Below are positions 7,246 through 62,644 of a stretch of 64,000 nt of DNA, one piece after another (position 1 is the first letter of the stretch; every line of letters starts with the position of its first letter). Both the position numbers and the translations under genes were made by a program. Source of the stretch: Eublepharis macularius (Eukaryota > Chordata > Lepidosauria > Squamata > Eublepharidae). The stretch spans positions 32,183,001 through 32,247,000 of the forward strand of contig NC_072807.1 of assembly GCF_028583425.1 (NCBI RefSeq), in the 5' to 3' direction. The notes below the pieces were generated by a model that worked only from the letters and a program-made list of their open reading frames with translations, did not search any database and had not been told where the DNA came from.

Positions 7246-7248
7246 TCA

Positions 7249-7462
7249 CCCTGACCTGGATAGCCCAGGTGAGCCTGATCTCATCAGATCTTAGAAGCTA
7301 AGTAGGGTCAGCCTTGGTTAGTAATCGGATGGGAGACCTCCAATGAAGACCAGGGTTGCAGAGGCAGGCAATGGCAAACCACCTCTGATAGTCTCTTGCC
7401 CTGAAAAACCCAGCAGGGGTTGCCATAAGTCAGCTATGACTTGAGGGCACCACACACACACA
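7249..7462 (+). mobile_element. 5S rRNA-headed SINE (5S-Sauria type)
   Basis: The head, GCCTGATCTCATCAGATCTT then AGAAGCTAAGTAGGGTCAG and GGATGGGAGACC, reproduces the 5S rRNA internal promoter region. The tail, GGCAATGGCAAACCACCTCT then TAAGTCAGCTATGACTTGAG, is Sauria/Bov-B-like. It ends in (CA)n. It is a SINE rather than a 5S gene because the 5S homology ends before the 3' part of the molecule. Confidence 0.85.
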
Positions 7463-11781: not shown

Positions 11782-11976
11782 AATGTATGAAGCTGTCTTA
11801 GACGGACTCAGCCCCTTTGTCTACCCAGGTCAGTACTGTCTACTCCAATGGATTGAGGGTCTCAGGGTATACTGTATCACCTGCTACATGATCTTTTCAA
11901 CTGGAAATGCCGGGGACTGAACTTGGGGCCTTCTGCATACAAAGCAGATGCGCTACCACTGAGCTACGGTCCCTAT
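11782..11976 (-). repeat. tRNA-derived SINE, second family
   Basis: The minus strand reads GGGACCGTAGCTCAGTGGTA, GCGCATCTGCTTTGTATGCA and AAGTTCAGTCCCCGGCAT. This is a clear tRNA-like head with A and B boxes and an anticodon-arm remnant. It is a SINE because a family-specific body follows. Confidence 0.75.
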
Positions 11977-13173: not shown

Positions 13174-13859
13174 CTGAAATCGCTGTAGGGGTGGATGATC
13201 CAGAAGCCGGCGGACTTGACCCGCTCCTGCTCCCTCTCCACGGCCTTCTGGCTGCCGAACATCCTCAAGGAGAACTTGTTGACCCCAGGCTGCAGCATGG
13301 CCCCGAACTGGCGCTGCATGAAGCCGGCCTGGCCCAGGCACTGCTCCTCCTCGGAGGTGATCTGCTCGGTCCCTCCTTCCCCTTCCACCTTGACGGAGGC
13401 GGAGGCGGGCGCGTCCGGGGGCGGCGAGGCGGCGGGCGCGGGGGACCCTCCCGGCGGGGCCTCCCGGGCTCCCGGCGGGCTCCCGTCCTCGCCAGGAGAC
13501 GCCGCCTCCCCCTCGCTACCGATCAGCCGGCGTTCCTCGGGCGCCTCGGGCGGGTGGCGGCCGCTGGCCAGCGAGGAGAGGCTCCCCTTGAAGCGGCGGC
13601 AGTCCCCGTTGGTGCCGGGCTTGGCGCTCTCCACCGCCTCGCAGCCGGCCCGGGCGGGCTCTCCTGCCCCGGGCCCGCGGGCGCCCCCTGGCGAGGGCGA
13701 GGGCAGGGGCTTGAGGCGGATGCTCTTGCGGGCGGCGTCCTGGCCGGCGCCTTCCTCCTCCTCCTCCTCCTCCTCCTCGCCCATCAGCGACGCCTTGGGG
13801 CCGATCTCCGGCGGGAGGCTGTAGAGGCGCTTACGCATCGCCGGCGGCAGGCGCTCCAT
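13174..13859 (-). CDS. HCN4: HCN4 exon 1: pacemaker channel N-terminus
   Basis: This exon encodes the cytoplasmic N-terminus of hyperpolarisation- and cyclic nucleotide-gated channel 4, the main sinoatrial pacemaker isoform: 228 codons plus two bases. Residues 1-16 ([16 protein letters not shown]) match the HCN4-specific start. A run of nine Glu follows at 28-36, then [27 protein letters not shown] and [11 protein letters not shown], all HCN4 landmarks. From about residue 174 comes the HCN domain ([20 protein letters not shown], then [20 protein letters not shown]), ending at HPYSDF-R. The ORF then meets donor CAG|GTAACG, where vertebrate HCN genes break before the first membrane segment. HCN1-3 lack the MRKRLYSLP start. 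The frame stays open for 62 codons upstream (to an ATG at 14045), but homology begins at 13859. At 229 residues this section is shorter than I recall for mammals. The middle of the protein is Pro/Gly/Ala-rich and of poor conservation. Confidence 0.95.
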
Positions 13860-14560
13860 GGCGAGCGGCGCTCCGGCGCGCCAGAGGTCGGCCAGCGGAG
13901 AGGGGCCGCCGCGGCTGCAGCCTGCCGGAGGGACGTCCGCTCCGCGGCGCCTTATCAGCTCATGGCCCTTCTGCCTCCTCCGCCTCCGCCTCCTCCCCGC
14001 CTCGGAAGGGACGCGCGAGCAGGGCGCGGGGACGGGCAGCCCCACAGCGGCTCCGAGCCGGCTAGCTGGCGTCCCACTGGGCCAGCCGCCCGCCCGCTCG
14101 CCCGCCCCGGGGCACCCGGCAGCCCTGCAGCGCCCGGGACATGGTGGGGGCTCGCGCGGCGGAGGGGGCGGCCGGGCCGAGGCGCTCCCCGGGGCTCCCC
14201 GCGACGCCTCCCGCCGAGCAGCTCCAGCGCCCGCGCCCCGGGCTCAGCCGCCCGCGGCAACCTGCAGCCCCCCGCGCCGGGGCGCCGCTGACATCACCGG
14301 CACCGCCGCTTCCTCCGGCGGCTGGCTGGGACTGGGCGAATATTCATGAAGCCAGCTGATCCGAGCGGGTTGCCATAGGAGCCACCGCGGCGGAGGGGCT
14401 CTGCCTACCTGCGCGGGCACCCCGGCTTCTTAAAAGGGCAACGCCTGGCCGGGAAGGTGTGCGCAAAAGGCGCCTCGGATGCGCAGCGAACCCGCGTCCC
14501 GGGCACGGGCCAGTCGGCGCTGGGCGTTAGGGGAAAGGCATTGCGGGTCTTCCCGCGACC
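13190..14560. promoter_or_regulatory. HCN4: CpG island covering HCN4 exon 1 and promoter
   Basis: GC content and CpG frequency rise sharply between about 13190 and 14560 and drop again on both sides. The island spans the coding part of exon 1, the presumed 5' UTR and the upstream promoter region (minus-strand gene). I see no convincing TATA box, as is common for CpG-island promoters, and the transcription start cannot be placed from sequence alone. Confidence 0.8.
13753..13778. repeat. HCN4: (CCT)n coding microsatellite, poly-Glu
   Basis: CCT/CTC repeats on the plus strand encode the Glu run of HCN4 residues 28-36 on the minus strand. Such tracts are prone to length variation. Confidence 0.85.
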
Positions 14561-24707: not shown

Positions 24708-25248
24708 CAAAAAGAGTCCAGTAGCACCTTTAAGACTAACCAATTTTATTATAGCATAAGCTTTCGAGAATCAAGTTCTCTTCATCAGATGCCTGATCAA
24801 AACTGGGCAGATACAGAAGAGGAGGGGGAAAGAGAGAGAAAAGGGAGGGGGCATAAATCACAAGAAGGCAGAATGCAATTAGCATAGAGGCAATCAAAAC
24901 ATTCCTTTGCTTGGAAAAGTAAACATTTCCTTTTGGTGTGCAGTCAGTTTGTAGCAGTGAAGGTATCCAATTCCTATGTAGTATAAGCCTTCGGTAACCA
25001 CAGCTCTCCCTGCCAGTTGCATCTGACAAAGAGAACTGTGGTCCCTGAAAGCCCACACTAGGCGTCACTGGGCTCCCCCAGATCACGCCTCTGTAAAGAG
25101 AATCTGTTACCTGTGGTAATGTGATAACCATTCATAGTCTCTATTCAGTCCCCGCTTGACAGAGTCAAATTTGCATATGAATTCCAATTCAGCAGCCTCC
25201 CGTTGGATTTTGTTTTTGAAAGGTTTCTGTTGAACCACAGCGACCTTT
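24708..25248 (-). repeat. PLE inverted arm, original 3' end
   Basis: It contains the last ~47 codons of the PLE frame, its TAA stop at 25107-25109 and the 3' UTR with the hammerhead-like motif. It pairs with 27345-27885. Confidence 0.9.
24745..24795 (-). ncRNA. Hammerhead-ribozyme-like motif, left arm
   Basis: On the minus strand, CTGATGA (24782-24788) is followed by a hairpin with a GAGAA/TTCTC stem. GAAA (24762-24765) comes next, then a very short stem AGC-TTAT-GCT and TA at the expected cleavage position. CTGATGA, stem II, GAAA and a minimal stem III are the layout reported for hammerheads in PLE terminal repeats. Stem I is weak by eye, so activity is not shown. Confidence 0.6.
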
Positions 25249-27344
25249 AAGTCTTTGGTGGAATGTCCTGGTAGATTGAAGTGTTCTCCCACTGGTTTTT
25301 GGACGTTTCCATTTCTAATGTCAGATTTGTGTCCATTTATTCTTTTGCGTAGAGGTTGGCTGGTTTGTCCAATGTACAGAGCAGAAGGACATTGTTGGCA
25401 CATGAGGGCATATATCAGATTGGAGGATGAGCAGCTGTAAGAGCCAGAGACAGTGTAGTTGATGCCATTGGGTCCTGTAATTGTATTCCCTGGGTAGATA
25501 TAGGGGCAGAGCTGGCATCTGGGTCTGTTGCAGGGCCTGGTCCCTGTGCTGGTGACTCTACTGGCCGATTCATGATTGTAAGTGAGAAGTCGTTTAAGAT
25601 TGGGGGGCTGTCTGTAGGCAAGGAAAGGTCTTCCACCCAGGGCTTCTGAGAAAGAGGTATCATTTTCCAGGATGGGTTGTAGCTCACTGATGATACGTTG
25701 GATGGGTTTGAGCTGGGAGCTATAGGTGACAACCAGTGGTGTTCTGTTGTTAGTTCCTTTAGGTTTGTCCTGGAGCAGACTGTTTCTGGGTACTAGTCTG
25801 GCCCTGTTAATTTGTTTCTTCACTTCATTTGGTGGGTATTGTAGTCCCAAAAATGCTTGTTGTAAATCTCTTAAGTGTGAGTCTCGGTCGAGAGCATTGG
25901 AGCAGATACGGTTGTAACGTAAGGCTTGGCTGTAGACAATAGACCGAGTGGTATGTTTAGGGTGGAAGCTGGAGGCATGTAGATATGAGTATCGGTCTGT
26001 TGGTTTCCGGTATAAGGTGGTATTTATTCGTCCATTATGTAGTTGTACAGTGGTGTCCAGGAAGTGTACCTGTTGTGTAGAGTGGTCCAGGCTTAGGTTG
26101 ATAGTAGGGTGAAAGTTATTGAAGTCCTGATGAAATCTCTCAAGGGCTTCCTTCCCATGGGTCCAAATGATGAAGATGTCATCCAGGAATCTTAAGTATA
26201 GTAGTGGTTCCAGTGGATGGGAGCTGAGGAAGCGTTGCTCTAAGTCCGCCATGAATATGTTAGCATATTGTGGTGCCATGCGTGTGCCCATGGCTGTGCC
26301 ATTAACCTGTAGATATAAGTTGTCACCAAATTCGAAGTAATTGTGAGTGAGTACGAAGTGACAAAGTTCAGTGGCGAGGTTTGCTGTGGTTTTGTCCGTG
26401 ATAATATTCCGTATGGCTTGCAGTCCATCTGCATGTGGGATATTGGTGTACAGGGCCTCCACATCCATGGTTGCTAGGATGGTGTCATCTGGTAGGTTGT
26501 CAATGGACTGTATTTTCCTGAGGAAGTCAGTGGTGTCCCGTAAGTAGCTGCGTGTGCTTGTGGCATAGGGCCTGAGGATAGAGTCCATGTATCCCGAGAC
26601 TCCTACTGTGATGGTGCATTTTCCTGCAACAATTGGGCGTCCTGGGTTACCCGCTTTGTGGATTTTGGGTAGTAGGTAGAATCTTCCTGGTCGTGGTTCC
26701 TGGGGTGTGTCCGTATGGATGCATTCTTGTATGTCCATGGGGAGTGTTTTTAATATTTTATTGAGTTCCCTTTTGTATTGTTCAGTGGGGTCAGAAGGTA
26801 GTATTTTATAGAATGTTGTGTTGGAGAGTTGTCTTTCTGCTTCTTGTATATAATTTTGTTTATCCATGATGACAACTGCTCCGCCTTTGTCAGCTTCCTT
26901 GATTACGATGCCAGAATTATTTTGGAGGCTGTTTATGGCCTCTCTTTCTCCACGGCTGAGGTTCTGCTTTAGGTGTTGTTGTTTGTCAATTATCTCAGCC
27001 TGAGCACGTCTACGGAAGCATTCAATGTAAAAGTCCAATGAGGAGTTATGGCCCTCAGGGGGTGTCCATGTGGAATTCTTTTTCCTGGAGTTTTGTAACG
27101 ATGGTTGTGTATTGCTGGGTTGGGGGGGTGGGGGCTGCTGAGGCTGCTGTGATGGTGTCTGTTCAGTGCTTTGTTCGTCGTTTTGTCCAGCAGAGTAGTT
27201 GAAGAATTCTTTCAGTCTTAGGCGTCTAAAATAGGCCTCCAGGTCTCCACAAAGTTGTATGGTTTGTGTGGGTCTGGCTGGGCAAAAGGATAGTGCACGT
27301 GAGAGGACAGATTCCTCTGCTGGGCTCAGCTTGTAACTGGAAAG
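25107..27344 (-). CDS. PLE reverse transcriptase with GIY-YIG endonuclease (5'-truncated)
   Basis: One open frame of about 745 codons runs from the inverted-repeat junction to TAA at 25107. It has no ATG near its start. It opens at codons reading YKLSPAEESVLSRALSFCP, a typical internal PLE N-terminal block, so the true start was lost at the junction. The reverse transcriptase motifs are DVEALYTNIPHADGL, NGTAMGTRMAPQYANI and LRFLDDIFIIW; the DD of the catalytic box is intact. Towards the C-terminus, a Cys-rich CNRPRCQLCP segment precedes LIYALMCQQC-ALYIGQTSQPLRKR, the GIY-YIG nuclease signature, then EAAELEFICKF. Family knowledge: the nuclease nicks the target and the RT primes from it. There are no internal stops, so the copy is young, though by itself it probably cannot make a complete protein. 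Confidence 0.88.
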   Translation of the reverse strand, partial: LSSYKLSPAEESVLSRALSFCPARPTQTIQLCGDLEAYFRRLRLKEFFNYSAGQNDEQSTEQTPSQQPQQPPPPQPSNTQPSLQNSRKKNSTWTPPEGHNSSLDFYIECFRRRAQAEIIDKQQHLKQNLSRGEREAINSLQNNSGIVIKEADKGGAVVIMDKQNYIQEAERQLSNTTFYKILPSDPTEQYKRELNKILKTLPMDIQECIHTDTPQEPRPGRFYLLPKIHKAGNPGRPIVAGKCTITVGVSGYMDSILRPYATSTRSYLRDTTDFLRKIQSIDNLPDDTILATMDVEALYTNIPHADGLQAIRNIITDKTTANLATELCHFVLTHNYFEFGDNLYLQVNGTAMGTRMAPQYANIFMADLEQRFLSSHPLEPLLYLRFLDDIFIIWTHGKEALERFHQDFNNFHPTINLSLDHSTQQVHFLDTTVQLHNGRINTTLYRKPTDRYSYLHASSFHPKHTTRSIVYSQALRYNRICSNALDRDSHLRDLQQAFLGLQYPPNEVKKQINRARLVPRNSLLQDKPKGTNNRTPLVVTYSSQLKPIQRIISELQPILENDTSFSEALGGRPFLAYRQPPNLKRLLTYNHESASRVTSTGTRPCNRPRCQLCPYIYPGNTITGPNGINYTVSGSYSCSSSNLIYALMCQQCPSALYIGQTSQPLRKRINGHKSDIRNGNVQKPVGEHFNLPGHSTKDLKVAVVQQKPFKNKIQREAAELEFICKFDSVKRGLNRDYEWLSHYHR

Positions 27345-27885
27345 AAAGGTCGCTGTGGTTCAACAGAAACCTTTCAAAAACAAAATCCAACGGGAGGCTG
27401 CTGAATTGGAATTCATATGCAAATTTGACTCTGTCAAGCGGGGACTGAATAGAGACTATGAATGGTTATCACATTACCACAGGTAACAGATTCTCTTTAC
27501 AGAGGCGTGATCTGGGGGAGCCCAGTGACGCCTAGTGTGGGCTTTCAGGGACCACAGTTCTCTTTGTCAGATGCAACTGGCAGGGAGAGCTGTGGTTACC
27601 GAAGGCTTATACTACATAGGAATTGGATACCTTCACTGCTACAAACTGACTGCACACCAAAAGGAAATGTTTACTTTTCCAAGCAAAGGAATGTTTTGAT
27701 TGCCTCTATGCTAATTGCATTCTGCCTTCTTGTGATTTATGCCCCCTCCCTTTTCTCTCTCTTTCCCCCTCCTCTTCTGTATCTGCCCAGTTTTGATCAG
27801 GCATCTGATGAAGAGAACTTGATTCTCGAAAGCTTATGCTATAATAAAATTGGTTAGTCTTAAAGGTGCTACTGGACTCTTTTTG
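27345..27885 (+). repeat. PLE inverted arm, duplicated 3' end
   Basis: It is an inverse copy of 24708-25248. It re-encodes the final ~45 residues of the PLE protein on the plus strand (QREAAELEFICKF to the TAA at about 27485), followed by the 3' UTR. Confidence 0.9.
27795..27850 (+). ncRNA. Hammerhead-ribozyme-like motif, right arm
   Basis: CTGATGA at 27805-27811, the stem-loop AGAGAACTTGATTCTC, GAAA at 27828-27831, then AGCTTATGCTA. It has the same sequence as the left-arm motif in the opposite orientation. Confidence 0.6.
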
Positions 27886-32399: not shown

Positions 32400-32560
32400 G
32401 TGTGCAAGCCAAAAATTTTCGGCTATAGCCGAAAGTAGAAAGCCGAAAGAAGATTCTCTATCGTTAAAGCCGAAAGCCGAAACAAGAATCTCTTTCGGCT
32501 TTCGACTTTCGGGATTCTTTCGGCATTATTTCGGCATTCTTTCGGCTTTTTTCTATGGGA
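32400..32560. repeat. TTTCGGC/GCCGAAA cluster, left end of hAT-like element
   Basis: About ten copies of TTTCGGC or its complement lie within 160 bp of the left terminus and are matched at 35965-36130. Clustered subterminal motifs are where hAT transposases usually bind. Confidence 0.75.
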
Positions 32561-32824
32561 AAATGCCTCCGTCTTCCCGGACGTCTGGGGGAGGCATTTT
32601 CCCACCGAATAAGCCCAAAATTGGTGGGGACCTTCCTCTAACCCTTCTCTAACAACCACCCAAGTTTCAGACAGATTGGACTTTGGGGGGCCATGTTATG
32701 GCCCCCCAAAGCAGGTCCCCCCATCCTCCCATAAGAAAGCGAAGGAGCAGCATATTGTTAGCATGCTGCTGCTCATCTTTCTTCATTATTTCCTATGGGG
32801 AAAAAATGAAGAGGCAGGCTTCCT

Positions 32825-33500
32825 TTGCCAGGGGTGGCATTTTGCATGCAAAATGCCCCCCTCACCCTCAGGGGCCCTTCTCCCACCCCTCCTCCCACCC
32901 CCCACCAAGGCTCAGCCTGCTCCCACTTGGGGGGGCCATTTCATGGCCTCCCCAAGTAGGTGCTCTAATCTCTACCACTGACAGCTGGGGGAGGCTTGTG
33001 TTGCCAAGGGTGGCATTTTGCATGCAAAATGCCCCCAAGCCCTCAGGGGCCCTTCTCCCACCCTTCCCCCCACCCCCCACCCAGGCTCAGCCTGCTCCCA
33101 CTTGGGGGGGCCATTTCATGGCCTCCCCAAGTAGGTGCTCTAATCTCTACCACTGACAGCTGGGGGAGGCTTGTGTTGCCAGGGGTGGCATTTTGCATGC
33201 AAAATGCCCCCCAACCCTCTGGGGCCCTTCTCCCACCCCTCCTCCCACCCCCCACCAAGGCTCAGCCTGCTCCCACTTGGGGGGGGGCATTTCATGGCCT
33301 CCCCAAGTAGGTGCTCTGCTCTCATCTCTACCACTGACAGCTGGGGGAGGCTTGTCTTGCCAGGGGTGGCATTTTGCATGCAAAATGCCCCCCAGCCCTC
33401 TGGGGCCCTTCTCCCACCCTTCCTCCCACCCCCCACCAAGGCTCAGACTGCTCCCACTTGGGGGGGGCATTTCATGGCCTCCCCAAGTAGGTCCTCTCAG
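32825..33500. repeat. ~177-bp tandem repeat, four units (left arm)
   Basis: Units are spaced 176, 175 and 181 bp. Each contains a perfect 22-bp palindrome centred on TTTTGCATGCAAAA, at 32836, 33012, 33187 and 33368, followed by C/T-rich sequence and CCATTTCATGGCCTCCCC. Confidence 0.9.
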
Positions 33501-34010
33501 CCCCTAAAGTCCACCCCTTACAGCCCCACACAAACCCAATTCCCCCCCAGCTGCCACACACAGACCCAAATCCCCACATTAGCCCCTCACAGACCCAAAT
33601 CCACCCCCACCTGCCCCACACCCATAACCCCAGGAACAGGCTGGCAAAGGCCAGCCCTCTCCCTTTGTTCCCTATGCTGGGAACTTCTAAACTCTCTTTC
33701 CCTGGGCAATTCTGCACAGCCCAGGGGTGCCACAATGGTGGGCACACTTCTGAGTGCCAGCTGGTCCCTGTGAAAGAGCACCTGAACCACAGACACCCTC
33801 CCTCAAATTCCCCCACCACCTACAGAGATGGCTGGCCAGCCAGCCCCATTGTTCCCTATGATGGGAACCAACTGCACAACAAAGAATAAAACAAGAACAA
33901 CACAAAATAAAGTTTAAAAAAAATTATTTTCTCCCTTCCAAAGTACAAGTAGGCAAAGCATTATGACACATTACACCAGCAGTCCCCCACACAGAAAAAT
34001 TAAAACAAAA

Positions 34011-34430
34011 CTCACTTAACATCAGAGAATCACAAAACACGATTCCTGTCAAAAACACTTTATTTCTTGAACAGCTTTAGGTTACACAGCAGGGGGGAAC
34101 ACCAAAGGGCATGGCAGCACTATCTTACACAAAAATAACACAACTCACTTAACATCAGAGAATCACAAAAGCACAATTCCTGTCAAAAACACTTTATTTC
34201 TTGAACAGCTTTAGGCTACACAGCAGGGGGGGAACACCAAAGGGCATGGAAGCAGTATCTTACACAAAAATAACACAACTCACTTCACATTAAAGAATCA
34301 CCCCAAAAAATTGCTGTCAAAAGCACTTTATTTCTGTAACTGCTTTAGGTTACACAGTAGGAAGGCACCACAGAGAAGGAAAGCAGTGTACTACACAAAA
34401 ATAACACAACTCACTTCACATCAGAGAATC
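34011..34430. repeat. ~133-bp tandem repeat, left arm
   Basis: Units start with CTCACTTAACATCAGAGAAT or a variant at about 34011, 34144, 34279 and 34410. Each carries CACTTTATTTCTTGAACAGC and ACACAGCAGGGGGGAAC. They are mirrored in the right arm. Confidence 0.85.
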
Positions 34431-34469
34431 ACACAAACACAATTGCTGTCAAAAACGGTGAAGTGGGTT

Positions 34470-34870
34470 GTATTATTTTTTGTAGTACATTGCTATCATG
34501 TCCTGTTGTGCCATCCTACTGTGTAACCTAAAGCTGTTCAAGAAATAAAGTGTTTTTGCCAGGAATTGTGTTTTTGTGATTCTCTGATGTTAAGTGAGTT
34601 GTGTTATTTTTGTGTAAGATAGTGCTGCCATGCCCTTTGGTGTTCCCCCCTGCTGTGTAACCTAAAGCTGTTCAAGAAATAAAGTGTTTTTAACAGGAAT
34701 TGTGCTTTGTGATTCTCTGATGTGAAGTGAGTTGTGTTATTTTTGTGTAAGATAGTGCTGCCATGCCCTTTGGTGTTCCCCCCTGCTGTGTAACCTAAAG
34801 CTGTTCAAGAAATAAAGTGTTTTTGACAGGAATCATGCTTTGTGATTCTCTGATGTTAAGTGAGTTTTGT
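34470..34870. repeat. ~133-bp tandem repeat, right arm
   Basis: This is the inverse of the left-arm array, with GCTGTTCAAGAAATAAAGTG recurring about three times. Confidence 0.85.
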
Positions 34871-35384
34871 TTTAATTTTTCTGTGTGGGGGACTGCTGGT
34901 GTAATGTGTCATAATGCTTTGCCTACTTGTACTTTGGAAGGGAGAATATAATTTTTTTAAAACTTTATTTTGTGTTGTTCTTGTTTTATTCTTTGTTGTG
35001 CAGTTGGTTCCCATCATAGGGAACAATGGGGCTGGCTGGCCAGCCATCTCTGTAGGTGGTGGGGGAATTTGAGGGAGGGTGTCTGTGGTTCAGGTGCTCT
35101 TTCACAGGGACCAGCTGGCACTCAGAAGTGTGCCCACCATTGTGGCACCCCTGGGCTGTGCAGAATTGCCTAGGGAAAGAGAGTTTAGAAGTTCCCAGCA
35201 TAGGGAACAAAGGGAGAGGGCTGGCCTTTGCCAGCCTGTTCCTGGGGTTATGGGTGTGGGGCAGGTGGGGGTGGATTTGGGTCTGTGAGGGGCTAATGTG
35301 GGGATTTGGGTCTGTGTGTGGCAGCTGGGGGGAATTGGGTTTGTGTGGGGCTGTAAGGGGTGGACTTTAGGGGCTGAGAGGACC

Positions 35385-35700
35385 TACTTGGGGAGGCCAT
35401 GAAATGGCCCCCCCAAGTGGGAGCAGGCTGAGACTTGGTGGGGGGTGGGAGGAGGGGTGGGAGAAGGGCCCCAGAGGGTTGGGGGGCATTTTGCATGCAA
35501 AATGCCACCCCTGGCAACACAAGCCTCCCCCAGCTGTCAGTGGTAGAGATGAGAGCAGAGCACCTACTTGGGGAGGCCATGAAATGGCCCCCCCAAGTGG
35601 GAGCAGGCTGAGCCTTGGTGGGGGGTGGGAGGAGGGGTGGGAGAAGGGCCCCTGAGGGTGAGGGGGCATTTTGCATGCAAAATGCCACCCCTGGCAAAGG
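35385..35700. repeat. ~180-bp tandem repeat, two units (right arm)
   Basis: Only two units are present, with the 22-bp palindrome at 35485 and 35665, against four in the left arm. Confidence 0.9.
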
Positions 35701-36147
35701 AAGCCTGCCTCTTCATTTTTTCCCCATAGGAAATAATGAAGAAAGATCAGCAGCAGCATGCTAACAATATGCTGCTCCTTTGCTTTCTTATGGGGAGGAT
35801 GGGGGGACCTGCTTTGGGGGGCCATAACATGGCCCCCCAAAGTCCAATCTGTCTGAAACTTGGGTGGTTGTTAGAGAAGGGTTAGAGGAAGGTCCCCACC
35901 AATTTTGGGCTTATTCGGTGGGAAAATGCCTCCTCCAGACGTCCTGGAAGACGGAGGCATTTTCCCATAGAAAAGCCGAAAGAAAGCCGAAAGAATCCCG
36001 AAACGTTTCGGCTTTTTTCTTTCGGCTACCCGAAACGTTTCGGCATTCCCCGAAACGTTTCGGCATTCCCCGAAAGAAGCCGAAACACTTTTGTTTCGGC
36101 ATTCTTTCGGCATTCTGAATGCCGAAACGCACATCCCTAGTGCATAG

Positions 36148-52788: not shown

Positions 52789-52791
52789 AAC

Positions 52792-52830
52792 GGCCGAATC
52801 CACACTTCCATTTTCCTCCGTTTTTTCCCC
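52792..52830 (+). repeat. Harbinger left terminal inverted repeat
   Basis: GGCCGAATCCACACTTCC matches the inverted right end with two differences. Homology fades after about 20 bp into T/C-rich sequence. Confidence 0.85.
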
Positions 52831-53443
52831 GCATAAAATCCGCAGGTCCCGTTTCAATTCACATACTCTAACCGCACATCCGGATTTCCCGCGGTTTTTT
52901 TCGAACGCATATTTCATGGGTTTCTTGCGCGTCTCTTGCGCAGCAAGCACCGCGGATGTGAACAAAAGAATCCGTTTCTCCTAGTTTCTGCCCAATCCAA
53001 ACCACTCCCATTGTCCTTTTTTCCCCTCCTCTGTTGCTGTGCCTTTCACCCTGTAAGTAAATCACTTGTTTTATATGTTTTTTTTTTATTTAACTTAACT
53101 TATATCGCTGCTCCGCAGCCACGAGTCGACAGTATCCCGAAAATGAAAAAGAAATTCCAGCTCGGGAAAAAATCCTTCCCAAGACGCCTGCTCAAACTTT
53201 CACTCTATCACCACCCCCTTTTTTTTTTTACTTTTTTTTTCAAGATTTCCGTTATGACGAGAAATCAAAGCAACCATAAATATATAGATCGAAACATAAA
53301 CATCACGATGATCGATTTTTGGTAAAGGTGATGACTGCCTTTGATGTTCAATCCGTGCTTCATTGAACAGCAAACTCTAGTATCCTTTAATCTCACACAC
53401 CGCCAATGTTGCCCCAACCGTTCCTTTTACGTTTACCTGATTC

Positions 53444-53456
53444 ATCGATATGTCGA
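53444..53456. promoter_or_regulatory. ATCGATAT motif upstream of gene A
   Basis: ATCGATATGTCGA lies about 140 bp before the gene A start codon. Related motifs precede genes B and C. It may be a site for the element's own DNA-binding proteins, or for a host factor; this is inference. Confidence 0.45.
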
Positions 53457-53597
53457 CAATTTCAACCGTGGAAAAAAATTAGGCGCGAAATGTAACGGTC
53501 GGAAAGAACGGTTTGCGCATGTTCGGAGCTACTGAGCAGGCGACATTCGAGCGGTGTGCAGCAATCAATGATCACTCGACCCCTTCAATAGAGCCAT

Positions 53598-55945
53598 TTG
53601 ATGTCCACAGTGTCTCAAGGTGGGTTGAAAATATCAGAGAGGGAGACCCCAAACATGTCAGCAGATGCATCCTCCACTGCCCGTTCCGCCACTTGGCGTG
53701 AACGAGAAATATTAGATCTTTTGGACTTGTGGGGCGAGGATAAGGTTCAGGAGGCCTTGCGCAGGTCGCATAGAAATATTGACTGCTATCATAAGATTGC
53801 CTCACAAATGGCTGTACGTGGACACAACAGATCCGCTCAGGAGTGCCGCAACAAAACCAAGAGCATGCGCTTGGAGTATAAAAGGGTCGTGGCTCATAAT
53901 GGCACATCGGGTAATTCCCCAACAACATGCGCTTACTACAGGGAGTTGCACAGCATCCTGCGTGGGGACGCAAGCGTTAAGCCAAAGCGCATAGCTCGAA
54001 GCTTGAACATTGCGGTTAAGGAGCTTCCAAGTCGCCCAGAGTTGATCCCATCAGACGGTTCAGAAGAACTCTTCTCTCATGACCTTGTAACCGTGGACTA
54101 CGATCACATACGAAGCTCCACACCTGCTCCAAGAGGTAACAAGGGGTGTGCGTGCCTTCGTCATGGTCACCGCCTACTGTGTTGTTGATTGACCCAGCAA
54201 TAAATGTTACTGGACTGTGACAATTTATTCTTATCCCAATCCACAGTTCAATCCTCCGTGTCCACAGAAGAGGGAACCGACTGTGACCTGGACAGCACAG
54301 TTGATGGACTGGCAGACAAAGGTGAGATTAGTGGGCTTGACAATGCAACACATGCCACAGTTTGCACATTGCATCTTCTCACGCATCGAGATTTTGAAAT
54401 GGGTAACAAAACATTCAGTCGTGTATGGGAGAGCAAGGCAATGATGCAAGGGCCCCTCATTCATGTCTAATTGCAGCACACCGGAAACGACCATCAGTGA
54501 CTGTGAAGGGCTAGGAAAGATGTTTGTGTGCCACTAGTGCACGTCGCCATTCCCTTGATCAAGGAGCGGTCTCCTTTTCCTCCTTGCAATACTAATCTGG
54601 ACTACAAGGGTTAAGTTTGAGTGGAGATAGACAGAACATGATTTGTATCAGCTTCACCGACAGGTCCCATGTCCTGTGTGCCCGGCAAACTGACTCTTTG
54701 AAATTTTTATGGCAAGATGTGTCCATGAATGGTTAGCCATCCGAGGGATGACTGAAAACTATGCTTTCATCATCATGCCAATCCTGACAATTTTTGCTAA
54801 CCCCTATGTCATTCTCTGCCCTTTTTTTTAATAATCTTGCCCAAGAATGGCCAGGACAGGGTTCCTGAATAGACAAGGTGGTTGCTGTTTGGTGGTGTGA
54901 AATGCGCTGATTAGTACTGCAAATTACCACCCGATATTGCTGTCCAAGGACAGGCGCTGTCTTTTTACTTGAAAATGGTAATGATTATCAGTTTCTTAAG
55001 TGCATATCATGTGTGAAATCAGTCCTGGTGGCACATCTGTTCCAGGGTGACAACTCAGCTGGAACATGGAGATCTCAATGAAATGCTGCCGATCATCTTG
55101 CGCTTTGCTGCGGAAACAGAGCTTTCCCCCACCGAAGTTTGAATGGCATTCAACAAGACATTTCATCTATTGGCCCCCCCATTGGAAAACAAGGATGTCA
55201 GGATGTCAACTAAAACCTGGCTAACTGCATCTCTATGTGTGATTCCAAACTGACTCTCATTTTTTTGTGGTCTCCTCAGAAAACATGGCGCCTTGCAATG
55301 ATGCACAGGAAGATTGGATTGGTGTGCGGGGGTCCCCTACCTCGCCCAAGGAATCAACAATTGGTAATTCACTCTGCATTTTCTGTCTCTGATCCTGATA
55401 AGATTTTCATGAATTGATTTCCGCCACAGTATGAGTTATGTTTGTCTCACTTCTACCAAAAATCAATGTTTTCATTCACAGAACGCGCAGGATCTCCAGC
55501 ATTAGAACCAGCAGAGCTCTCACCAGGAACACGTCTTTCAAAAATCAGAAACAGAAAACGAAAAAATGCCGCTCTTTATGGTGTGGCGGACCAAATGCTC
55601 AGCCAAAACAGGACTTTGCACCGAGAGCAGCTTAAGGAATGGAGAGCAGAAAGACAGGAAAATATGAGGTGGTTGGAGGAGGATAAGCGGGTACAAATGG
55701 ATTTTCTGGAGGAAGCAAGGAGGGAAAGGAATGATTTGAGGGAGGCATGGAGGGAAAACCTTGATATAATGAGGGCTGCAGTCGGCACACTGCAAACGCT
55801 TGGGGAATTGATGGTTCAGCAAAAGCAGACGGTCAATCCCTCTGACATGGCACTCAGAATTCCTGAATCACAGCCATCAATTGTCAGAGCAGCCGGTGCT
55901 AAGCGTTCCTGTGTGGGAAAGGCCCGGGAGAGGTTGACGTTGTAG
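53598..55945 (+). CDS. Harbinger gene A: Myb/SANT-like DNA-binding protein
   Basis: Predicted exons are 53598-54135, 54247-54321, 55280-55363 and 55482-55945. Every intron is GT-AG and phase 1, and the joined frame gives 386 residues and TAG at 55943. Residues about 31-125 form a Myb/SANT-like trihelix domain (TWREREILDLLDLWGEDKVQ, RNIDCYHKIASQMAVRGHNR, then AQECRNKTKSMRLEYKRV) with the spaced Trp/aromatic residues of Myb_DNA-bind_4, the kind seen in Harbinger-encoded partners and some SCAN zinc-finger proteins. The middle is acidic. The last exon has a basic KIRNRKRK stretch (possible nuclear signal) and a long charged coiled coil (about 265-345). The first ATG (53598) is used; the next Met, at 53655, is also plausible. 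AATAAA follows at 56210. By family analogy it should bind the element ends and carry the transposase into the nucleus. Confidence 0.85.
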
Positions 55946-56209
55946 AATTGTTTACAGAGCCCTCTTTCATGTTATGTTGTGTGTTGTGTTAACCATCCAC
56001 TGTCAGGGAAAGCATTTCTAACAGTTAGTATCAAGTGATTGCCCATGTCTGAATAATAGCGATGAGTGATGCAAATCTATTAGACAAGATTGCGGTCAAT
56101 GCCCCTGATCAACAACCACTGTTGGCAGTTTCAGCCTTGACATTCCACCCAAAGCCCAATGATCACTTATGTGGCGAACTAAGAACTCAGCATTGTTGGT
56201 TAAACCCAA

Positions 56210-56215
56210 AATAAA
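56210..56215 (+). terminator. Poly(A) signal, gene A
   Basis: AATAAA lies 265 bp after the gene A stop codon. Confidence 0.65.
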
Positions 56216-56742
56216 GTGTTTGTATGTTGCAAACTTGAGGACAATCTTTCTGTATTCTCACCTCCTCTTGTTCTGTCTATGACTGACCGTCACTGGAGAA
56301 ATAAAGGGGAGCATCGGTCAACATGGTTTGGTGGTGGTCTACACTAAATATCTTCAATAGTCACCCACAAGGGGAATGAGAACCGTTTTTTGTCTCCTTA
56401 TAACTCACTTTGAAATAACAATCCTTGGTTTTTGTATGTCTTGGAGCGTAAAGGTGAGCTGATGCTACTCGTGAGAATGTCAATCAGCACGGCTGAGACA
56501 AGGGTCATGTTAGCAGATCCACCTTATCAATGTGTGGGAGGTGTGATGTGATCAAGGAACCTATCGTGGATCAATGTTGTGGATTGTTGTTTTGTGTGGA
56601 ATTTTCCAAATTGAAGTCCATTGAGGATGGCTTGGGAAAAAGATGCCTGTAAGACGGCCACAGTGGTAAGACATCACTCCAAATGCCCTTCCTTTGGAAA
56701 GAATGGGGGCACACAAACGGATTATTAAACTCAGAATAAATT

Positions 56743-56748
56743 TTTATT
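56743..56748 (-). terminator. Poly(A) signal, gene B
   Basis: AATAAA on the minus strand lies about 170 bp after the gene B stop codon. Genes A and B are convergent and end about 530 bp apart. Confidence 0.65.
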
Positions 56749-56916
56749 AACAAACACACAAACTAACATCACACAACAAGAAAGATACGTTAGGCTTCTT
56801 AAAAATTGCCTATAACTATGATGGGACCAACTATTAACATTTCAGAAAGTGATCTGGAAAGGGCCAAATTCAACAACTCAGACTGGACAAAAAAGGGGCT
56901 CACAAACAAAAATCGA

Positions 56917-59410
56917 CTAAACACCCTCCTCTGTTGGAGTTGCACCCCTGTTGGTCTGTCCCCGCTGCCGTTCCCGCCTCTCCATCCGTGACATTCTCCT
57001 GCTCAGCCTTGTCAGTCTGGCATCGAACGAGGACATCCTATCCATCATTTTGGTAACTGTGAAAACAGTGTCAAGTGAAGTGTTAAGCGAATGTTAATGT
57101 GCCCCTCACATCACATTTCCAGTAAGTGTATCGCTGCTAGAACAACAGACAACAGTCATGTTTAACAAAACTGAGATTTCCAGGGATTCAATAAAAGAAT
57201 GCATGATAGCGCTTCCTTTGCTGTCATCTGTTGGAGCATGGGGTGGCCGACACACCATGCAACCCACAACTTTTATTGCTAACGGGCGGTTAGAGAGAAA
57301 GTATGTTTCCTTTCCGTCAACAGATGACACATTGCAATTTTGATGTTTCAGAGACCTCTAGGTGACCTCGAGGTAAAAGAAATGCACCTCTGGATCAGTG
57401 AACGGTTCGAGTTTTGGGTGGGTGGGGGTGTGTTCGCCCGGCCTTATCAGTACAACAATAGTGGAATTTAGCTGTTTCTTTCAAAAGCAGCAGGTGTTCC
57501 AAAACCCCCCCAAAAATGGTCAGCATGTGCCGTGGCGATATGCAAGGTACAGTTATTGTGCTGGACAATGTGGTGTTGGAGAATCACCGGCAATGTGGAG
57601 TGATGTCCCGCAACCCTCAGGTGTGATCAGAACAGGGAGGTGAAAAAAACACTCACTGGTCCCTCCAATTCTCCCCTCCAGGCCGTTAAGCAGGCGGTAG
57701 ACATCCTCCACCGTGTGCTGTTCAGTTGGATGCCGCTGTGTGGAGGATGAATGGGGCTGTGCCTCAGCAGGATCAGCTTGGAAAGAAAAGGGAAATACAC
57801 GCTGTTCAGTTATGACTTCTGCATAGACATTGCGCGCAGTGTTGTCCAAATGGGAATATGCCTTACTTTGCAAAAGGGTTCTTGTCCTTAATTTTTTTCA
57901 TGGTGTTCAAAATGGAATTGCATGTCAATCCTTTGGCATGGATGCGGATTGTGCTTAGAGGTTTGTGCTCATTCTGCAGTTTCCATGCCAAAAGGAAAAT
58001 TTTGGTGGGTTGAACATCTGATTTTCTTTTGATGGTGTGCTCAACGCTTATTGATAAGCGACACGGATTAACAGCACACCACTGTACAGGGAACAGTTCA
58101 CCACAAAACAACATGATGTGAGAGGGAACCAGTCAATGTGCAGATGTGATCCTTTTAAATGCCCCTTTTAGGGTTTCTAGTCTGGGTAATCCACATTACA
58201 AAGATAAAGTCATTTGTGATTTTCGACACACACGACTCCATCATGCTTACAGGTGGCGGGAGTCTGAACCTGGGCAACATCAACAGGGCCAGGCAACTCT
58301 TCTGAGTAGTCCTCCTGGACACCGCTGGTCTCCCCTTCTGCTGGCAAGGCTTGCCGCTCGTCCTGGCTGCGATGAACCACTAAAAAAAAAATTAAACAAA
58401 GAACAGAGATGCTCAGATGACTTTTTATGTTTATGCAAGCTACAGCAGCCACCAAGAAAATTAGAATAAACTAGTGACATCTCATTAAGTGGTTTTCCTG
58501 GCCCTGTGATAAAACATGATTTTTTTCATTCCAGTATATAACACTTAACTGCTGACCCTTTATGAGCCAAGGACAAAAGGACAGTGGTTCCTATCACTGG
58601 ATCAGCAACAAACCCCCCCCCACCCAATTTTTTTTAATTTGTAGACAGGAAAAAAGGAACCTTTTGTTTGGTGCAGCATTTGGGCGTGGAAGATGCTTGG
58701 GCACTCCTTGTGTATGTAAGAGTGCTTGAGCTGGATGGCCAATGCACCTGAGGATTTAATCTTTGTGAGGCAGGTCTGACTACGAGTAGCGCTTTATTAG
58801 AAAAAAAATTGGGCCGGGGCCAGACCGTCCACTAATCGTTCAAATGGGTCAGGCAGTCAAAACGAGATATTGGGTTCTCTAATGTGACACTTGAAAAGGC
58901 AATGATATATCGATTCGATGTTATTTTTTTTTCTTTTATTCTCAAGGACACCCCAGACACATGTTGGACACTTTGCAGATTAGGTCCTCTGGGGAGGGAC
59001 AGGACTATGGAATGAAGCAATGATGCAAAGAGTCTTTTTTGCAAATTTTAAAAAAAAATCACCTTACCAGAATGACGGCGGGCGATCCAGCTCGGTCTCC
59101 CGGCTTGCTCCCAGAGGCGGAGCATCGTGGAGAAGTGTGCAGGGCGAGCGCTTTGGCGGGGAATGCCCTGCCAGGCCTCCAGGGCGTCGAAGAAGGCACC
59201 CTTAACCCGCTTAAACTTTGAGCGGCATTGCTCCGCGGAACGGGTGAAACCGCGGGCACCCATCTGCCTTGATAGCCTGAGAAAGATCAGGCGAGTAGGC
59301 AGATGGGTGCTTTTCATCACCCGTTCCGCTTTTCCACTTCTCTCGAGGAGTTCCAGCATGGCCTCGACCTCCGCTTCCCTCCAAAACACTCCCTTGCCGC
59401 TGGGCGCCAT
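56917..59410 (-). CDS. Harbinger gene B: second Myb/SANT-like protein
   Basis: Predicted exons from 5' to 3' are 59068-59410, 58251-58379, 57657-57776 and 56917-57056. All are GT-AG with phase-1 introns, and they join to 243 codons plus TAG. Residues about 8-110 form a Myb/SANT-like domain (VFWREAEVEAMLELLERSGK, ARGFTRSAEQCRSKFKRVKG, then FSTMLRLWEQAGRPSW), with Trp at 10, the basic AEQCRSKFKRVK helix and a final conserved Trp pair. The middle exons are Glu/Gln/Pro-rich. The last exon encodes a basic amphipathic helix (RMSSFDARLTRLSRRMSRME), likely a short coiled coil. Its sequence differs strongly from gene A, but its architecture and intron phases are the same. Gene B lies between gene A and the transposase and shares the transposase's strand. 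Its role is inferred: a second transposase partner or a regulator. Confidence 0.85.
59068..59410 (-). CDS. Gene B exon 1 (Myb/SANT domain)
   Basis: It encodes 114 codons plus one base and ends at CTG|GTAAGG. The ATG at 59408-59410 sits in a favourable ATGG context with A-rich sequence upstream. Confidence 0.85.
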
Positions 59411-59431
59411 TTTTGTTAGTGCTTAATGCCC

Positions 59432-59439
59432 TATCGATA
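59432..59439. promoter_or_regulatory. TATCGATA motif upstream of gene B
   Basis: A perfect 8-bp palindrome, 22 bp before the gene B start codon. See the related motifs near genes A and C. Confidence 0.5.
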
Positions 59440-60176
59440 AATTGCACTCCTTCTTCTGCGCATGCACGAAATCGTCTCCAGCTCTCAAAAAAGGCGCGAA
59501 TAAAAACCATCCGTTATCATCTTGCGGAGAGCGCTGCGCACTTTAACGATTGATCGAAATTTCAAATTTTAAAAATAACGTGAATGGCGAACACAACTCT
59601 ATCAAATTGTGAGAAAGGAAGGCAAAAGTTACCAAAAAAAATTGGACACTGCGTGGATTGTTTACAAGACATTTCAACGTGATCTGAAACAAAACGTGTT
59701 GGATTCATTGGCTTTGTACTTGAGACATTGGAGACAACCTTTTATTGGTTTACCAAAAGATAAAAAATTAATGTGAACAAACCGGGGGGGGGGGGGGTTT
59801 GTGTCTTGTCTTTTTTCTCCCTTTTTTTTTTTATTTTAATTTTTCTATGTATGAGTCAATATTTTCAACGGTAGTCCTAGGTGAAATACACCCTGGGCTA
59901 GTTTTTTTCAAGACACGGCAAAGGGGCACACGTGGGAAACCGGTTTGGCCACTGTGCAGAGACCATCATCTTACCCAATGTCGCGTTCTGGATCATAGGA
60001 TGTCGCATAACAGTGCATGCATAAGTGCAGGATAAATTTTTGTTTTGATCATGTGGGAGTGAACCCCCACAACGTTTGTGCTACTGATCAGAGTCTTCAA
60101 TGTATTGAAAATGATTCCTGTGGAGCAATCTTCCCTTTCAATAATTTCACAGTCATTGAACCAAGTAAATCCAAAC

Positions 60177-60182
60177 TTTATT
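60177..60182 (-). terminator. Poly(A) signal, transposase
   Basis: AATAAA on the minus strand lies about 75 bp after the transposase stop codon. Confidence 0.65.
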
Positions 60183-60253
60183 TTTAATAAAGAATCATGC
60201 ATTCAAAAAGTAATTTGAGAAGGAACATTCTTGACATCAGAGCATTAAACCCA

Positions 60254-60976
60254 CTATGTATGATGTCCATGCTGTAACCCACGAGCCATCCAACTCGACA
60301 CCACCTCACGCACCGCCTTGCCCTGATCCAGATGGTTGTCTTGCATTTCCCCATCTTGTCCTGCCACCCTGGAGATGAGCAGTGGGTCTACATCGCCCAC
60401 CCCTCCAACGATGTCGTGCCCCCTATCCTCACAGAGGTTGTGGAGGACCACGCAGGCGGTGACAATTGACACCACGTTTTGTTCTCTGGCCAATAGTCTG
60501 TGGGACAGGCACCTGAACCTGGCCTTCAAGCGGCCGAAAGCACACTCCACCCGATTGCGTGCTCTAGCAAGACACCGGTCAAACCTCCTATGTGCCTCTG
60601 TTTCCGCAAATCTTCCGAATGGCTTCAACAGCCAACGGCGCATCGGGTAGGCACCATCTGCAAGCACCAAGGGAGGCACATGAACTCCATCGACACAGAT
60701 GGTAGGATTGCCAGGCACAAAGGACCCAGAGTCCATAGCAACACAGAATGCGGAGTGAGTGAAGACGAAGGCGTCGTGATTTCGACCACTCCACCCAATC
60801 TCTGCATCGATGAACCTTCCCCGGTGATCAACAGTTCCCTGGAGAAGGATTGATGAATAACTTTTACGGTTACCGTACTGGTCGGGCCTTCCTCCAGGGG
60901 AACATATGGGGATGTGTGTGCCATCAATGGCCCCAATGCAGTGTGGCATCCCAAGTTGCAGGAAACCGTCCATTAT
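60254..60976 (-). CDS. Transposase exon 2 (DDE catalytic core)
   Basis: 240 codons plus stop, preceded by a pyrimidine-rich tract and TTTTCAG. It holds all three catalytic acids. Confidence 0.9.
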   Translation of the reverse strand: MMDGFLQLGMPHCIGAIDGTHIPICSPGGRPDQYGNRKSYSSILLQGTVDHRGRFIDAEIGWSGRNHDAFVFTHSAFCVAMDSGSFVPGNPTICVDGVHVPPLVLADGAYPMRRWLLKPFGRFAETEAHRRFDRCLARARNRVECAFGRLKARFRCLSHRLLAREQNVVSIVTACVVLHNLCEDRGHDIVGGVGDVDPLLISRVAGQDGEMQDNHLDQGKAVREVVSSWMARGLQHGHHT

Positions 60977-61941
60977 CTGAAAAGGAAATAAAAAATGCAA
61001 ACCAGTCAAGATGTGAAACAAAGGCATTCAATGAACCACATCTAATTGCTTTCTCCATAACCATCATATGGGAATCACATGTCAATGAGAAGACAGTTCA
61101 TGTCAGCAATGAGGCAGGACCATACCATGTCAACTTCATTGTGCAAAGCCAGTGACAAGAAAACTTTCACAAGTTACACTCACACTCTTTTTGGAAATGT
61201 TAAGGCACACACACACACAGACACGCAAGTGGTGGATGGTGCAGCCCTCTGTAATTAAAGTCAGGAATTATTCAATGTCTACCGGTGTCGATATAACAGT
61301 TTAATGAACTAACAGAAAGACATTACCCTCCCAACGTTGGTCCCTAGCCGAACGGTCTTCGAAAGCAGCTTGTGCTCGACGGCCAGACAGAATTCAATCA
61401 CCAGACTGGCGACGGTGGAGCGACCGACCCCGAAGATGTCATTTGCCACCTGGTAAGTGGAGCCGCTTGCCAGGAACCACACAGCCACAGCCACCCTCTT
61501 CTCCACAGATATGGCTTCTCGAAACGTGGTCCGTTGCCTCTCCAGACGAGGTCGAAGCACAGAAACAAGATAGCCAAAGGTGCTGCGGGACATTCGGAAT
61601 CGGCAGATCCATTCGTGGTCATCCCAGACTTGGAGCACTATCCGCTCCCACCAGTGATCGCTTCGTGGATAGACCCAGCAATCTCTGGGATCATTCAACT
61701 CAGCCACAGAACACCACTGTAACGCAGGGTCATTCCCTTCAGCTCGGATCCGGCGACGGCGTCGGGATGCAAAGGCAAGCAGGCGACGACGGATGCGTCT
61801 TCTTTGATGAAGGAATCGAGCAGTCGCACGATTCGAACGAGCGATGTATCGACTGTAAGATCGAAACATCTCTGAACTGCAACGAAGCAACATGGCAACC
61901 ACTTGTCCGATCAGAAACAGAACCGTCTCTCTTGGAGCCAT
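60254..61941 (-). CDS. Harbinger gene C: PIF/Harbinger DDE transposase
   Basis: Two exons, 61327-61941 and 60254-60976, are joined in phase 0 (AGG|GTAATG to TTTTCAG|ATAATG) and give 445 residues. The N-terminus is Arg-rich. A helix-turn-helix region follows (VEKRVAVAVWFLASGSTYQV, then FGVGRSTVASL), as in HARBI1-type proteins. The catalytic core is intact: GAIDGTHIPI (Asp about 223), LADGAYPMRRW (Asp about 312) and RNRVECAFGRLKARFRCL (Glu about 349), the DDE_4-type triad, plus HNLCEDRG near the end. Length and order match the family. It would cut and rejoin the element ends. In the characterised system it needs a Myb-like partner to enter the nucleus and bind DNA, and this element offers two candidates. 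The ATG at 61941 is the first in frame and fits the family. No frame damage is visible. Confidence 0.92.
61327..61941 (-). CDS. Transposase exon 1 (helix-turn-helix region)
   Basis: 205 codons from ATG at 61941 to the GTAATG donor. It encodes the Arg-rich start and the DNA-binding region. Confidence 0.88.
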
Positions 61942-62248
61942 AGTGATCGCCCACCGCTCTAACTACCCACAAAGGAAAAACGCACAGCGCACGGCTTTTA
62001 TGCCGATTCAAATTCACCCGCGCTGAAAAGGGGACCAATAGTTGGAAGGAGCGCTGACGTGAAACGTGGGCATCCTATCGCTGAACACTTGGTGGGTTGG
62101 TCCTCGCAATTTCAAGTTGCCGATATATTGTCAGTACGGAATAAAATAAACTTTTGGGAGAAATGCGTGTTGGTGTAATGAATGTTGCAAACGACGGACC
62201 TAACCCAAAGTGAAAATTAGGGGCAATCGACTACACATACCAACAAAC

Positions 62249-62261
62249 TATCGATATATCG
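62249..62261. promoter_or_regulatory. TATCGATATATCG motif, right end of Harbinger
   Basis: It lies about 310 bp upstream of the transposase start and about 225 bp inside the right terminus. A related CCGATATATTG is at 62120-62130. Confidence 0.5.
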
Positions 62262-62446
62262 GAAATAAACAACAATTTTTTAAAAAATGCGTAGTGATGT
62301 CATCGCGTATGCGATGGAAGGACACGCCCCGAAAAGCGCATTTCTAACGGAGATGTGAACAGAATTCGGCGCGCAACATCCGCTATCGGAAAGGGTGTGA
62401 GAACACCAAAGGGGGAAATGCGCGCTGGAGAACAACAGAAGACAAG

Positions 62447-62485
62447 CGGAAGAAATGCGAAGGGGAAGGTAGTGTGGATTCAGCC
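62447..62485 (-). repeat. Harbinger right terminal inverted repeat
   Basis: Read inward on the minus strand: GGCTGAATCCACACTACC then TTCCCCTTCGCATTTCTT. It is followed outside by the AAC duplication. Confidence 0.85.
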
Positions 62486-62644
62486 AACATTTCACTTCCA
62501 CAATAGTCTGCACAAGAATTGAACATGCTCTCTGCCTTAGAGGAATAGTGATGGCAGTTAAGCAACAGGTTTTTTTTAAAAAGAAAAGTGTGTGTTTGTG
62601 GGGGGAGAATTAGTCTGCTCAAGTCCCTAGCAGTTTATAGCATA

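What the first reader, a model, noticed from the sequence alone, without database searches (positions are those of the whole stretch)
52792..62485. Intact three-gene PIF/Harbinger transposon with two Myb/SANT-like partner genes
Seen: matching termini, an AAC duplication, a transposase with an intact DDE triad, and two separate spliced genes each encoding an N-terminal Myb/SANT-like domain and a C-terminal coiled coil. Known: Harbinger elements usually encode one transposase and one Myb-like protein, and the partner is needed for nuclear import and end binding. Inference: this lineage runs a two-partner system, for example one protein per end, an activator/inhibitor pair, or a heterodimer. At 9.7 kb it is also long for the superfamily. 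It is my best candidate for a previously undescribed system.
Basis: partly seen in the sequence, partly recalled or inferred. Interest (0 to 1): 0.88.

Follow-up and report, generated by a model that had tools for sequence, protein, structure and literature searches.

The report
Three-gene Harbinger transposon with two Mybs
A jumping gene in what appears to be the leopard gecko genome carries a transposase and two different DNA-binding partner proteins instead of the usual one, and related elements keep the same three-gene set, which points to an unusual two-partner way of moving DNA.

Summary
Window 52792-62485 is an intact Harbinger-type DNA transposon (TIRs 16/18, AAC duplication) with a DDE transposase (T) and two Myb/SANT genes, A and B. 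The host genome was searchable; I infer leopard gecko. Ten full-length copies, 98-99.9% alike, have different flanks: T and A open in 10 of 10, B in 8 of 10. Of the 150 best T matches, 139 have B downstream, all on T's strand. Seven of seven subfamily elements read carry all three genes between TIRs. B's Myb exon is under strong purifying selection (dN/dS 0.02 in the closest pair; A 0.07, T 0.10). B sequences form one clade apart from A, so the pair predates the subfamilies. Gene order varies (T-B-A, T-A-B). Also found: GTTCACA sites at fixed places (T-side +81, +125; far side +65), a target RAC-NNN-GTY without a fixed 3-bp duplication, and gene-less derivatives keeping both ends. I propose that both Mybs are working partners in one asymmetric complex; that step is inferred. 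'One protein per end' gets no support: both ends carry the same motif. The papers I saw describe one Myb partner.

The parts
52789..52791 (.). target-site duplication AAC, left copy
52792..52809 (+). left terminal inverted repeat GGCCGAATCCACACTTCC
   Evidence: 16 of 18 match the right one
52857..52863 (+). left subterminal GTTCACA-like site (ATTCACA here) at +65
53601..55945 (+). gene A, exons 53601-54135, 54247-54321, 55280-55363, 55482-55945; 385 aa, Myb/SANT domain, long C-terminal helix in a relative's model, C-terminal RSCVGKARERLTL
56917..59410 (-). gene B, exons 59410-59068, 58379-58251, 57776-57657, 57056-56917; 243 aa, distinct Myb/SANT domain, C-terminal helix in a relative's model
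60254..61941 (-). transposase T, exons 61941-61327 and 60976-60254; 445 aa, D223 D312 E349
62354..62360 (-). right subterminal site GTTCACA at +125 from the right end
62398..62404 (-). right subterminal site GTTCTCA at +81 (GTTCACA in e89, e67, e213, e101)
62468..62485 (-). right terminal inverted repeat
62486..62488 (.). target-site duplication AAC, right copy

Best explanation
An autonomous-looking, recently mobile cut-and-paste transposon of the Harbinger (PHIS) kind whose lineage has a set of three genes. Shown: the three-gene unit moves as one (ten full-length copies), the A/B pair is older than the subfamilies, and the tested exons of all three genes are under purifying selection between subfamilies; most ends examined share an asymmetric set of sites (TIR core GAATCCACA, plus GTTCACA at +81 and +125 on the transposase side and at +65 or +66 on the other); insertion prefers RAC-NNN-GTY and duplicates the middle 3 bp; gene-less deletion derivatives that keep both ends have been inserted too. 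Inferred: A and B are both DNA-binding partners that bring the transposase to these sites (TIR core and GTTCACA may be their two site classes, or one shared class TYCACA), forming one asymmetric complex in which B is needed as well as A, and one or both also help with nuclear import and target choice.
For: Co-occurrence: B downstream of 139 of 150 T matches, 139 of 139 on T's strand; A downstream of 87 of 150, 87 of 87 opposite (one A query, list cut at 150). Seven of seven subfamily elements have matches to all three genes between TIRs. dN/dS, window/e89: B Myb exon 0.02, A Myb exon 0.07, A last exon 0.15, T 0.10; e24/e196: 0.10, 0.06, 0.26, 0.05. Distances correlate: T-A r 0.90, T-B 0.81, A-B 0.79. 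Fixed sites in 5 of 7 subfamilies, then both T-side sites at exactly +81 and +125 in 7 of 12 further loci and an eighth recovered afterwards by looking for the spaced pair. Deletion derivatives: 8 of 8 read keep both ends. Target flanks in 24 sites. Precedent: the zebrafish Harbinger3_DR Myb-like protein recognises a 9-bp subterminal motif (PMC9710019, passages) and is required for nuclear localisation of its transposase (PMC2836001, passages).
Against: No binding, interaction or mobility data. B is frameshifted near its end in 2 of 10 copies with different flanks; they share the change, so a copy with it probably moved (perhaps helped in trans). Subfamilies e24 and e196 lack the T-side GTTCACA sites and have another TIR core; of the 12 further loci one (L046) has a TIR but no sites and in three no TIR was located. 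B was not found at 11 of 150 T matches (lists are capped). The window T has an arginine-rich stretch of its own, so it may not need a partner for import. Among the near-identical copies the few codon variants show no excess of silent changes (A 9 silent/13 not, B 2/5, T 14/11). In nine one-sided flanks the target preference is weaker.
Confidence: 0.6

Rival explanations
1. A is the ordinary Harbinger partner and does all end binding; B is a regulator, for example a repressor of the element's own promoters or a protein that counters host silencing.
For: B lies in a separate, deeply split Myb clade. In T-A-B elements A and B are divergently transcribed, with their Myb exons about 1.2 kb apart, a place for shared promoter control. 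B is broken in 2 of 10 copies while A and T are open in 10 of 10.
Against: B's Myb exon is about as constrained as those of T and A and B lies near 139 of 150 T matches. The two broken copies share one 1-base change in the last exon only.
Confidence: 0.25
2. One partner per end: A serves one end and B the other.
For: The ends are asymmetric: two sites at +81/+125 on the T side, one at +65 or +66 on the other.
Against: Both ends carry the same TIR core and the same GTTCACA motif; number and spacing differ.
Confidence: 0.08
3. B is a captured passenger or a nested separate transposon without a role.
For: Transposons can pick up genes (general knowledge); B's place differs between T-B-A and T-A-B elements.
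Against: 139 of 150 T matches have B, all in one orientation; 7 of 7 subfamily elements have it; dN/dS 0.02; the nine other full-length copies align end to end with the window copy. Termini around B alone were not searched for separately.
Confidence: 0.03
4. A and B are subfunctionalised duplicates of one partner that act interchangeably or as a heterodimer with one shared site class (TYCACA).
For: Profiles of A and B align over the Myb domain (hhalign 96%, 28% identity); TIR core TCCACA and subterminal TTCACA look alike.
Against: The Myb domains are very divergent and the rest of the proteins does not align.
Confidence: 0.3

Closest known systems
PIF/Harbinger group of the PHIS superfamily (Harbinger3_DR, Ping/Pong)
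   Same: DDE transposase, separate Myb/SANT protein, 3-bp duplication, short TIRs; Harbinger3_DR has a subterminal binding motif and mPing is a gene-less derivative (passages)
   Different: two Myb genes instead of one; duplication mostly not TWA; two gene orders
NuwaI and NuwaII groups (Han et al. 2015, PMC4482050)
   Same: PHIS elements with a Myb/SANT partner, TIRs that begin with GG, non-TWA 3-bp duplications
   Different: duplication is neither CWG nor TNA as a rule; two Myb genes; 8.8-11.8 kb against means of about 4.46 and 4.69 kb
PHISTA elements of rust fungi (PMC12730594, passages)
   Same: a three-gene PHIS element
   Different: there the extra genes are a TET/JBP dioxygenase and a protein without Myb/SANT domain; duplications are TA
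Harbinger-Snek of sea kraits (PMC8437027, passages)
   Same: recent Harbinger burst in a squamate
   Different: one transposase and one Myb-like protein, proposed to come from a marine donor; not compared by sequence here

Membership tests
PHIS / Harbinger superfamily in the wide sense | DDE_Tnp_4-type transposase with intact DDE | tested here: met
   Pfam E 1.4e-30; residues located by recalled motifs
PHIS / Harbinger superfamily in the wide sense | separate Myb/SANT protein | tested here: met
   met twice, A and B
PHIS / Harbinger superfamily in the wide sense | 3-bp duplication and TIRs | tested here: met
   duplication perfect in 9 of 10 near-identical copies, 14 of 16 with the six other subfamily elements, 7 of 8 derivatives
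PHIS / Harbinger superfamily in the wide sense | place in a transposase phylogeny with known PHIS groups | not tested
   no reference transposases of the groups were at hand
PIF/Harbinger group in the narrow sense | duplication 5'-TWA-3' | tested here: not met
   1 of 24 triplets; TAA in 1 of 8 derivatives
PIF/Harbinger group in the narrow sense | two ORFs, one transposase and one Myb/SANT protein ('most' members) | tested here: not met
   three genes in 7 of 7 subfamily elements (and window)
NuwaI | duplication CWG, TIR usually GGG | tested here: not met
   CWG 3 of 24 and 1 of 8 (CTG); TIRs GGCC, GGCT, GGTC, GGTT
NuwaII | duplication TNA in C|TNA|G | tested here: not met
   TNA 1 of 24; flank preference is AC|NNN|GT
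ISL2EU | YqaJ exonuclease ORF, 2-bp AT duplication | tested here: not met
   no YqaJ match among the eight ORF pieces given to Pfam; 3-bp duplication

The most novel reading that the evidence does not exclude
A new group of PHIS transposons that needs three proteins: two anciently distinct trihelix Myb partners, each reading its own site class (TIR core and GTTCACA), build with the transposase an asymmetric end complex and steer insertion to RACNNNGTY. Movement would depend on both partners.
Probability: 0.35. Interest if true: 0.8.

Novelty: new variant of a known kind. Interest (0 to 1): 0.63.

Why it matters
Harbinger elements already stand out for dividing DNA binding and catalysis between two proteins. 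A lineage that keeps a second DNA-binding partner under strong selection, with end sites at fixed positions, makes the question of what the partner does (import, end binding, target choice) testable by dropping one protein at a time. Intact, nearly identical copies and short derivatives already exist, so the parts for such an assay are at hand.

Tried and rejected
Nested transposon or passenger: all nine other near-identical copies align end to end with B inside. One-Myb families: families that first seemed to lack B (e196, e24, e213) have it. One odd arrangement among the 61 T/A/B sets has a T with a B of its own listed; I take it for two neighbouring elements. Chance motif: in 500 shuffles the best shared 7-mer reached 8 of 14 ends once, against 9 observed; interior control one 44-bp-spaced pair in 132164 bases, both strands. 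Covariation of A or B recognition helices with the changed TIR of e24/e196: compared by eye, no clear signal. Structure matches of the B model: best Foldseek hit E 0.029 (Sap1), GT-1 at 0.59, none at 0.001 or better; weak, used only as support for a trihelix fold. The A model is poor outside the long helix. T against PDB sequences: nothing useful. Codon variants among the ten copies are too few to show selection.

Literature: paper searches (open-access library; where many papers matched, only the first 10 to 30 were listed). I saw listings and abstracts' beginnings, passages of PMC9179366, PMC4482050 (also sections 7 and 8), PMC8437027, PMC9710019, PMC12730594, PMC2836001 and PMC3158080 (its 'second myb-like protein' means one Myb). 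None of this showed a Harbinger with two Myb genes. The primary Harbinger3_DR paper is not held. Repbase and Dfam could not be searched.

Not done: B and A were not sought at DNA level in other reptile genomes (none held); protein searches found B relatives outside the inferred host only in Heteronotia binoei (P0042, 52% over 49% of the query) and weakly in Phrynocephalus forsythii (P0043). Intactness of the genes was tested in the ten near-identical copies only. The right-end genome search and a second A query did not complete.
Full report
What is there. Its termini are inverted repeats of 18 bp, 16 matching, flanked by AAC on both sides. Gene A (plus strand) and gene B (minus strand) each splice from four exons at GT-AG sites, all introns in phase 1, into 385 and 243 residues. 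The transposase T (minus strand) splices from two exons into 445 residues; the donor site is the least certain point, since three other donors also keep a frame. Pfam finds Myb_DNA-bind_4 in both A and B and DDE_Tnp_4 in T; D223, D312 and E349 are the triad as read from recalled motifs. The exon joins of A agree with an independently annotated protein, 314 of 316 aligned residues identical.

Where it is. The window lies in a held genome of 2.24 Gb. Four of its contigs (C3, C5, C6, C13) have exactly the lengths of contigs that hold proteins named Eublepharis macularius; several others differ from similar lengths there by about 1 to 17 kb. I infer the leopard gecko, perhaps another version of the same assembly.

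Copies. All ten T matches of 98% or more are full-length elements of 9684-9697 bp; the nine others are 98.0-99.9% identical to the window copy, with different flanks. Nine of ten duplications are perfect. T and A are open in 10 of 10; B in 8 of 10, the other two sharing a one-base change in the last exon. The closest pair of copies differs at 0.08% of compared sites, so movement was recent.

Lineage. The genome search scored 150 matches per query out of more than a thousand candidates, so lists are capped. With three B queries, 139 of the 150 T matches have B downstream within 20 kb, 139 of 139 on T's strand, 135 within 6 kb; 11 have none in the lists. A, with one query, lies downstream of 87 of 150, 87 of 87 on the opposite strand. 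Of 83 with both in the lists, 43 have the order T-B-A and 40 T-A-B. A first tally without the downstream condition had one of 61 in another arrangement, which looks like two neighbouring elements. I read seven subfamily elements from end to end (the window's and six others, picked by hand from the lists): all seven have matches to T, A and B between TIRs, 8764 to 11788 bp apart. In e196 the TIRs were found by motif and its duplication is imperfect (TTG/CTG). So B is not a feature of one copy.

Selection and history. In the pair window/e89, dN/dS is 0.02 for the Myb exon of B, 0.07 for A's, 0.15 for A's last exon and 0.10 for T's second exon; in the pair e24/e196 it is 0.10, 0.06, 0.26 and 0.05. 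Most other pairs are saturated at silent sites. The genes show correlated distances: T-A r 0.90 (19 of 5040 permutations as high), T-B 0.81 (6), A-B 0.79 (12). The pairs window/e89 and e24/e196 appear in all four exon trees; e67/e101 appears in three of four (not in A's Myb exon). In the unrooted Myb tree all seven B sequences, with the two proteins from other lizards, are split from A and four host proteins (support 1.0, long branch). Profiles of A and B align only over the Myb domain. The pair A/B therefore existed before these subfamilies split.

Ends. Comparing the two ends of the seven elements, I found GTTCACA pointing inward at +81 and +125 from the T-side end and at +65 or +66 from the other end in five of seven, each with at most one mismatch; e24 and e196 lack the T-side sites and have another TIR, e24 has an exact site at +60 on the other side. 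I then tested 12 further T loci: 7 have both T-side sites within one mismatch at exactly these positions; an eighth (L049, with a worn TIR) was recovered afterwards by looking for the spaced pair; one has a TIR without the sites, and in three no TIR was located. Some of the 12 are close relatives, so they are not fully independent. Interior sequence held one such 44-bp-spaced pair in 132164 bases.

Target. The duplicated 3 bp are not fixed: of 24 triplets, 1 fits TWA, 3 CWG and 1 TNA. The flanks are: in 24 sites with both sides read (16 elements, 8 derivatives), position -2 is A in 22, -1 is C in 17, +1 is G in 16 and +2 is T in 16, that is RAC-NNN-GTY. In nine further one-sided flanks the signal is weaker: +1 G in 4 and A in 5, +2 T in 6.

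Derivatives. A search with the left end gave 35 places, 20 near an A match and 15 not. I read 8 of the 15: all eight are deletion derivatives of 797 to 1626 bp that keep at least 449 bp of the left and 300 bp of the right end, with five different deletions, and seven of eight perfect duplications. Seven of eight keep the three sites within one mismatch; in L061 the fixed positions do not line up. So the ends appear to be enough in cis.

How it works. Shown: three genes, co-inherited, selected, recently mobile, with end sites at fixed places in most subfamilies examined. Known from others: the zebrafish Harbinger3_DR Myb-like protein recognises a 9-bp subterminal motif and is required for the transposase to reach the nucleus (PMC9710019 and PMC2836001, passages). 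Inferred: here the work is shared by two Mybs. Since both ends carry the same motifs in different number, a joint asymmetric complex is likelier than one protein per end. A regulator role for B is the main rival.

Novelty. The PHIS survey (PMC4482050, passages and two sections), the teleost survey (PMC9179366, passages) and the sea-krait paper (PMC8437027, passages) describe one Myb partner. None of the paper searches turned up a two-Myb Harbinger in what I saw, but their lists were partial and subscription papers, Repbase and Dfam were out of reach. From memory only, the zebrafish Harbinger3 target consensus also has AC and GT around its 3-bp duplication, which would fit the flanks found here.

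Noticed in passing
window 32549-35974: A large near-perfect foldback: inverted arms up to 637 bp at 98%, with 175-bp and 133/134-bp tandem repeats.
   Followed up: partly
window 25107-27359 (-): A 750-aa open frame that looks by eye like a Penelope-like retroelement.
   Followed up: no
window 13170-14243 (-): Open frame that looks by eye like the first exon of an HCN channel gene, perhaps HCN4.
   Followed up: no
window 7247-7364 (+) and 11902-11973 (-): Rfam matches to 5S rRNA and tRNA, perhaps parts of SINEs.
   Followed up: no
proteins P0027-P0029 and P0031-P0033 (other squamates): Annotated host proteins that join RING-finger domains to a Myb domain like that of gene A; perhaps a domesticated partner gene.
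   Followed up: no
window 52857-52863; L055-L060: The left site at +65 reads ATTCACA in the window copy and in L054 but GTTCACA in deletion derivatives L055-L060.
   Followed up: partly
G000 C2:184852697, C11:49239307 and 11 like places: A/B pairs about 4 kb apart without a T match among the 150 listed; either another subfamily with a more distant T or copies without T.
   Followed up: no
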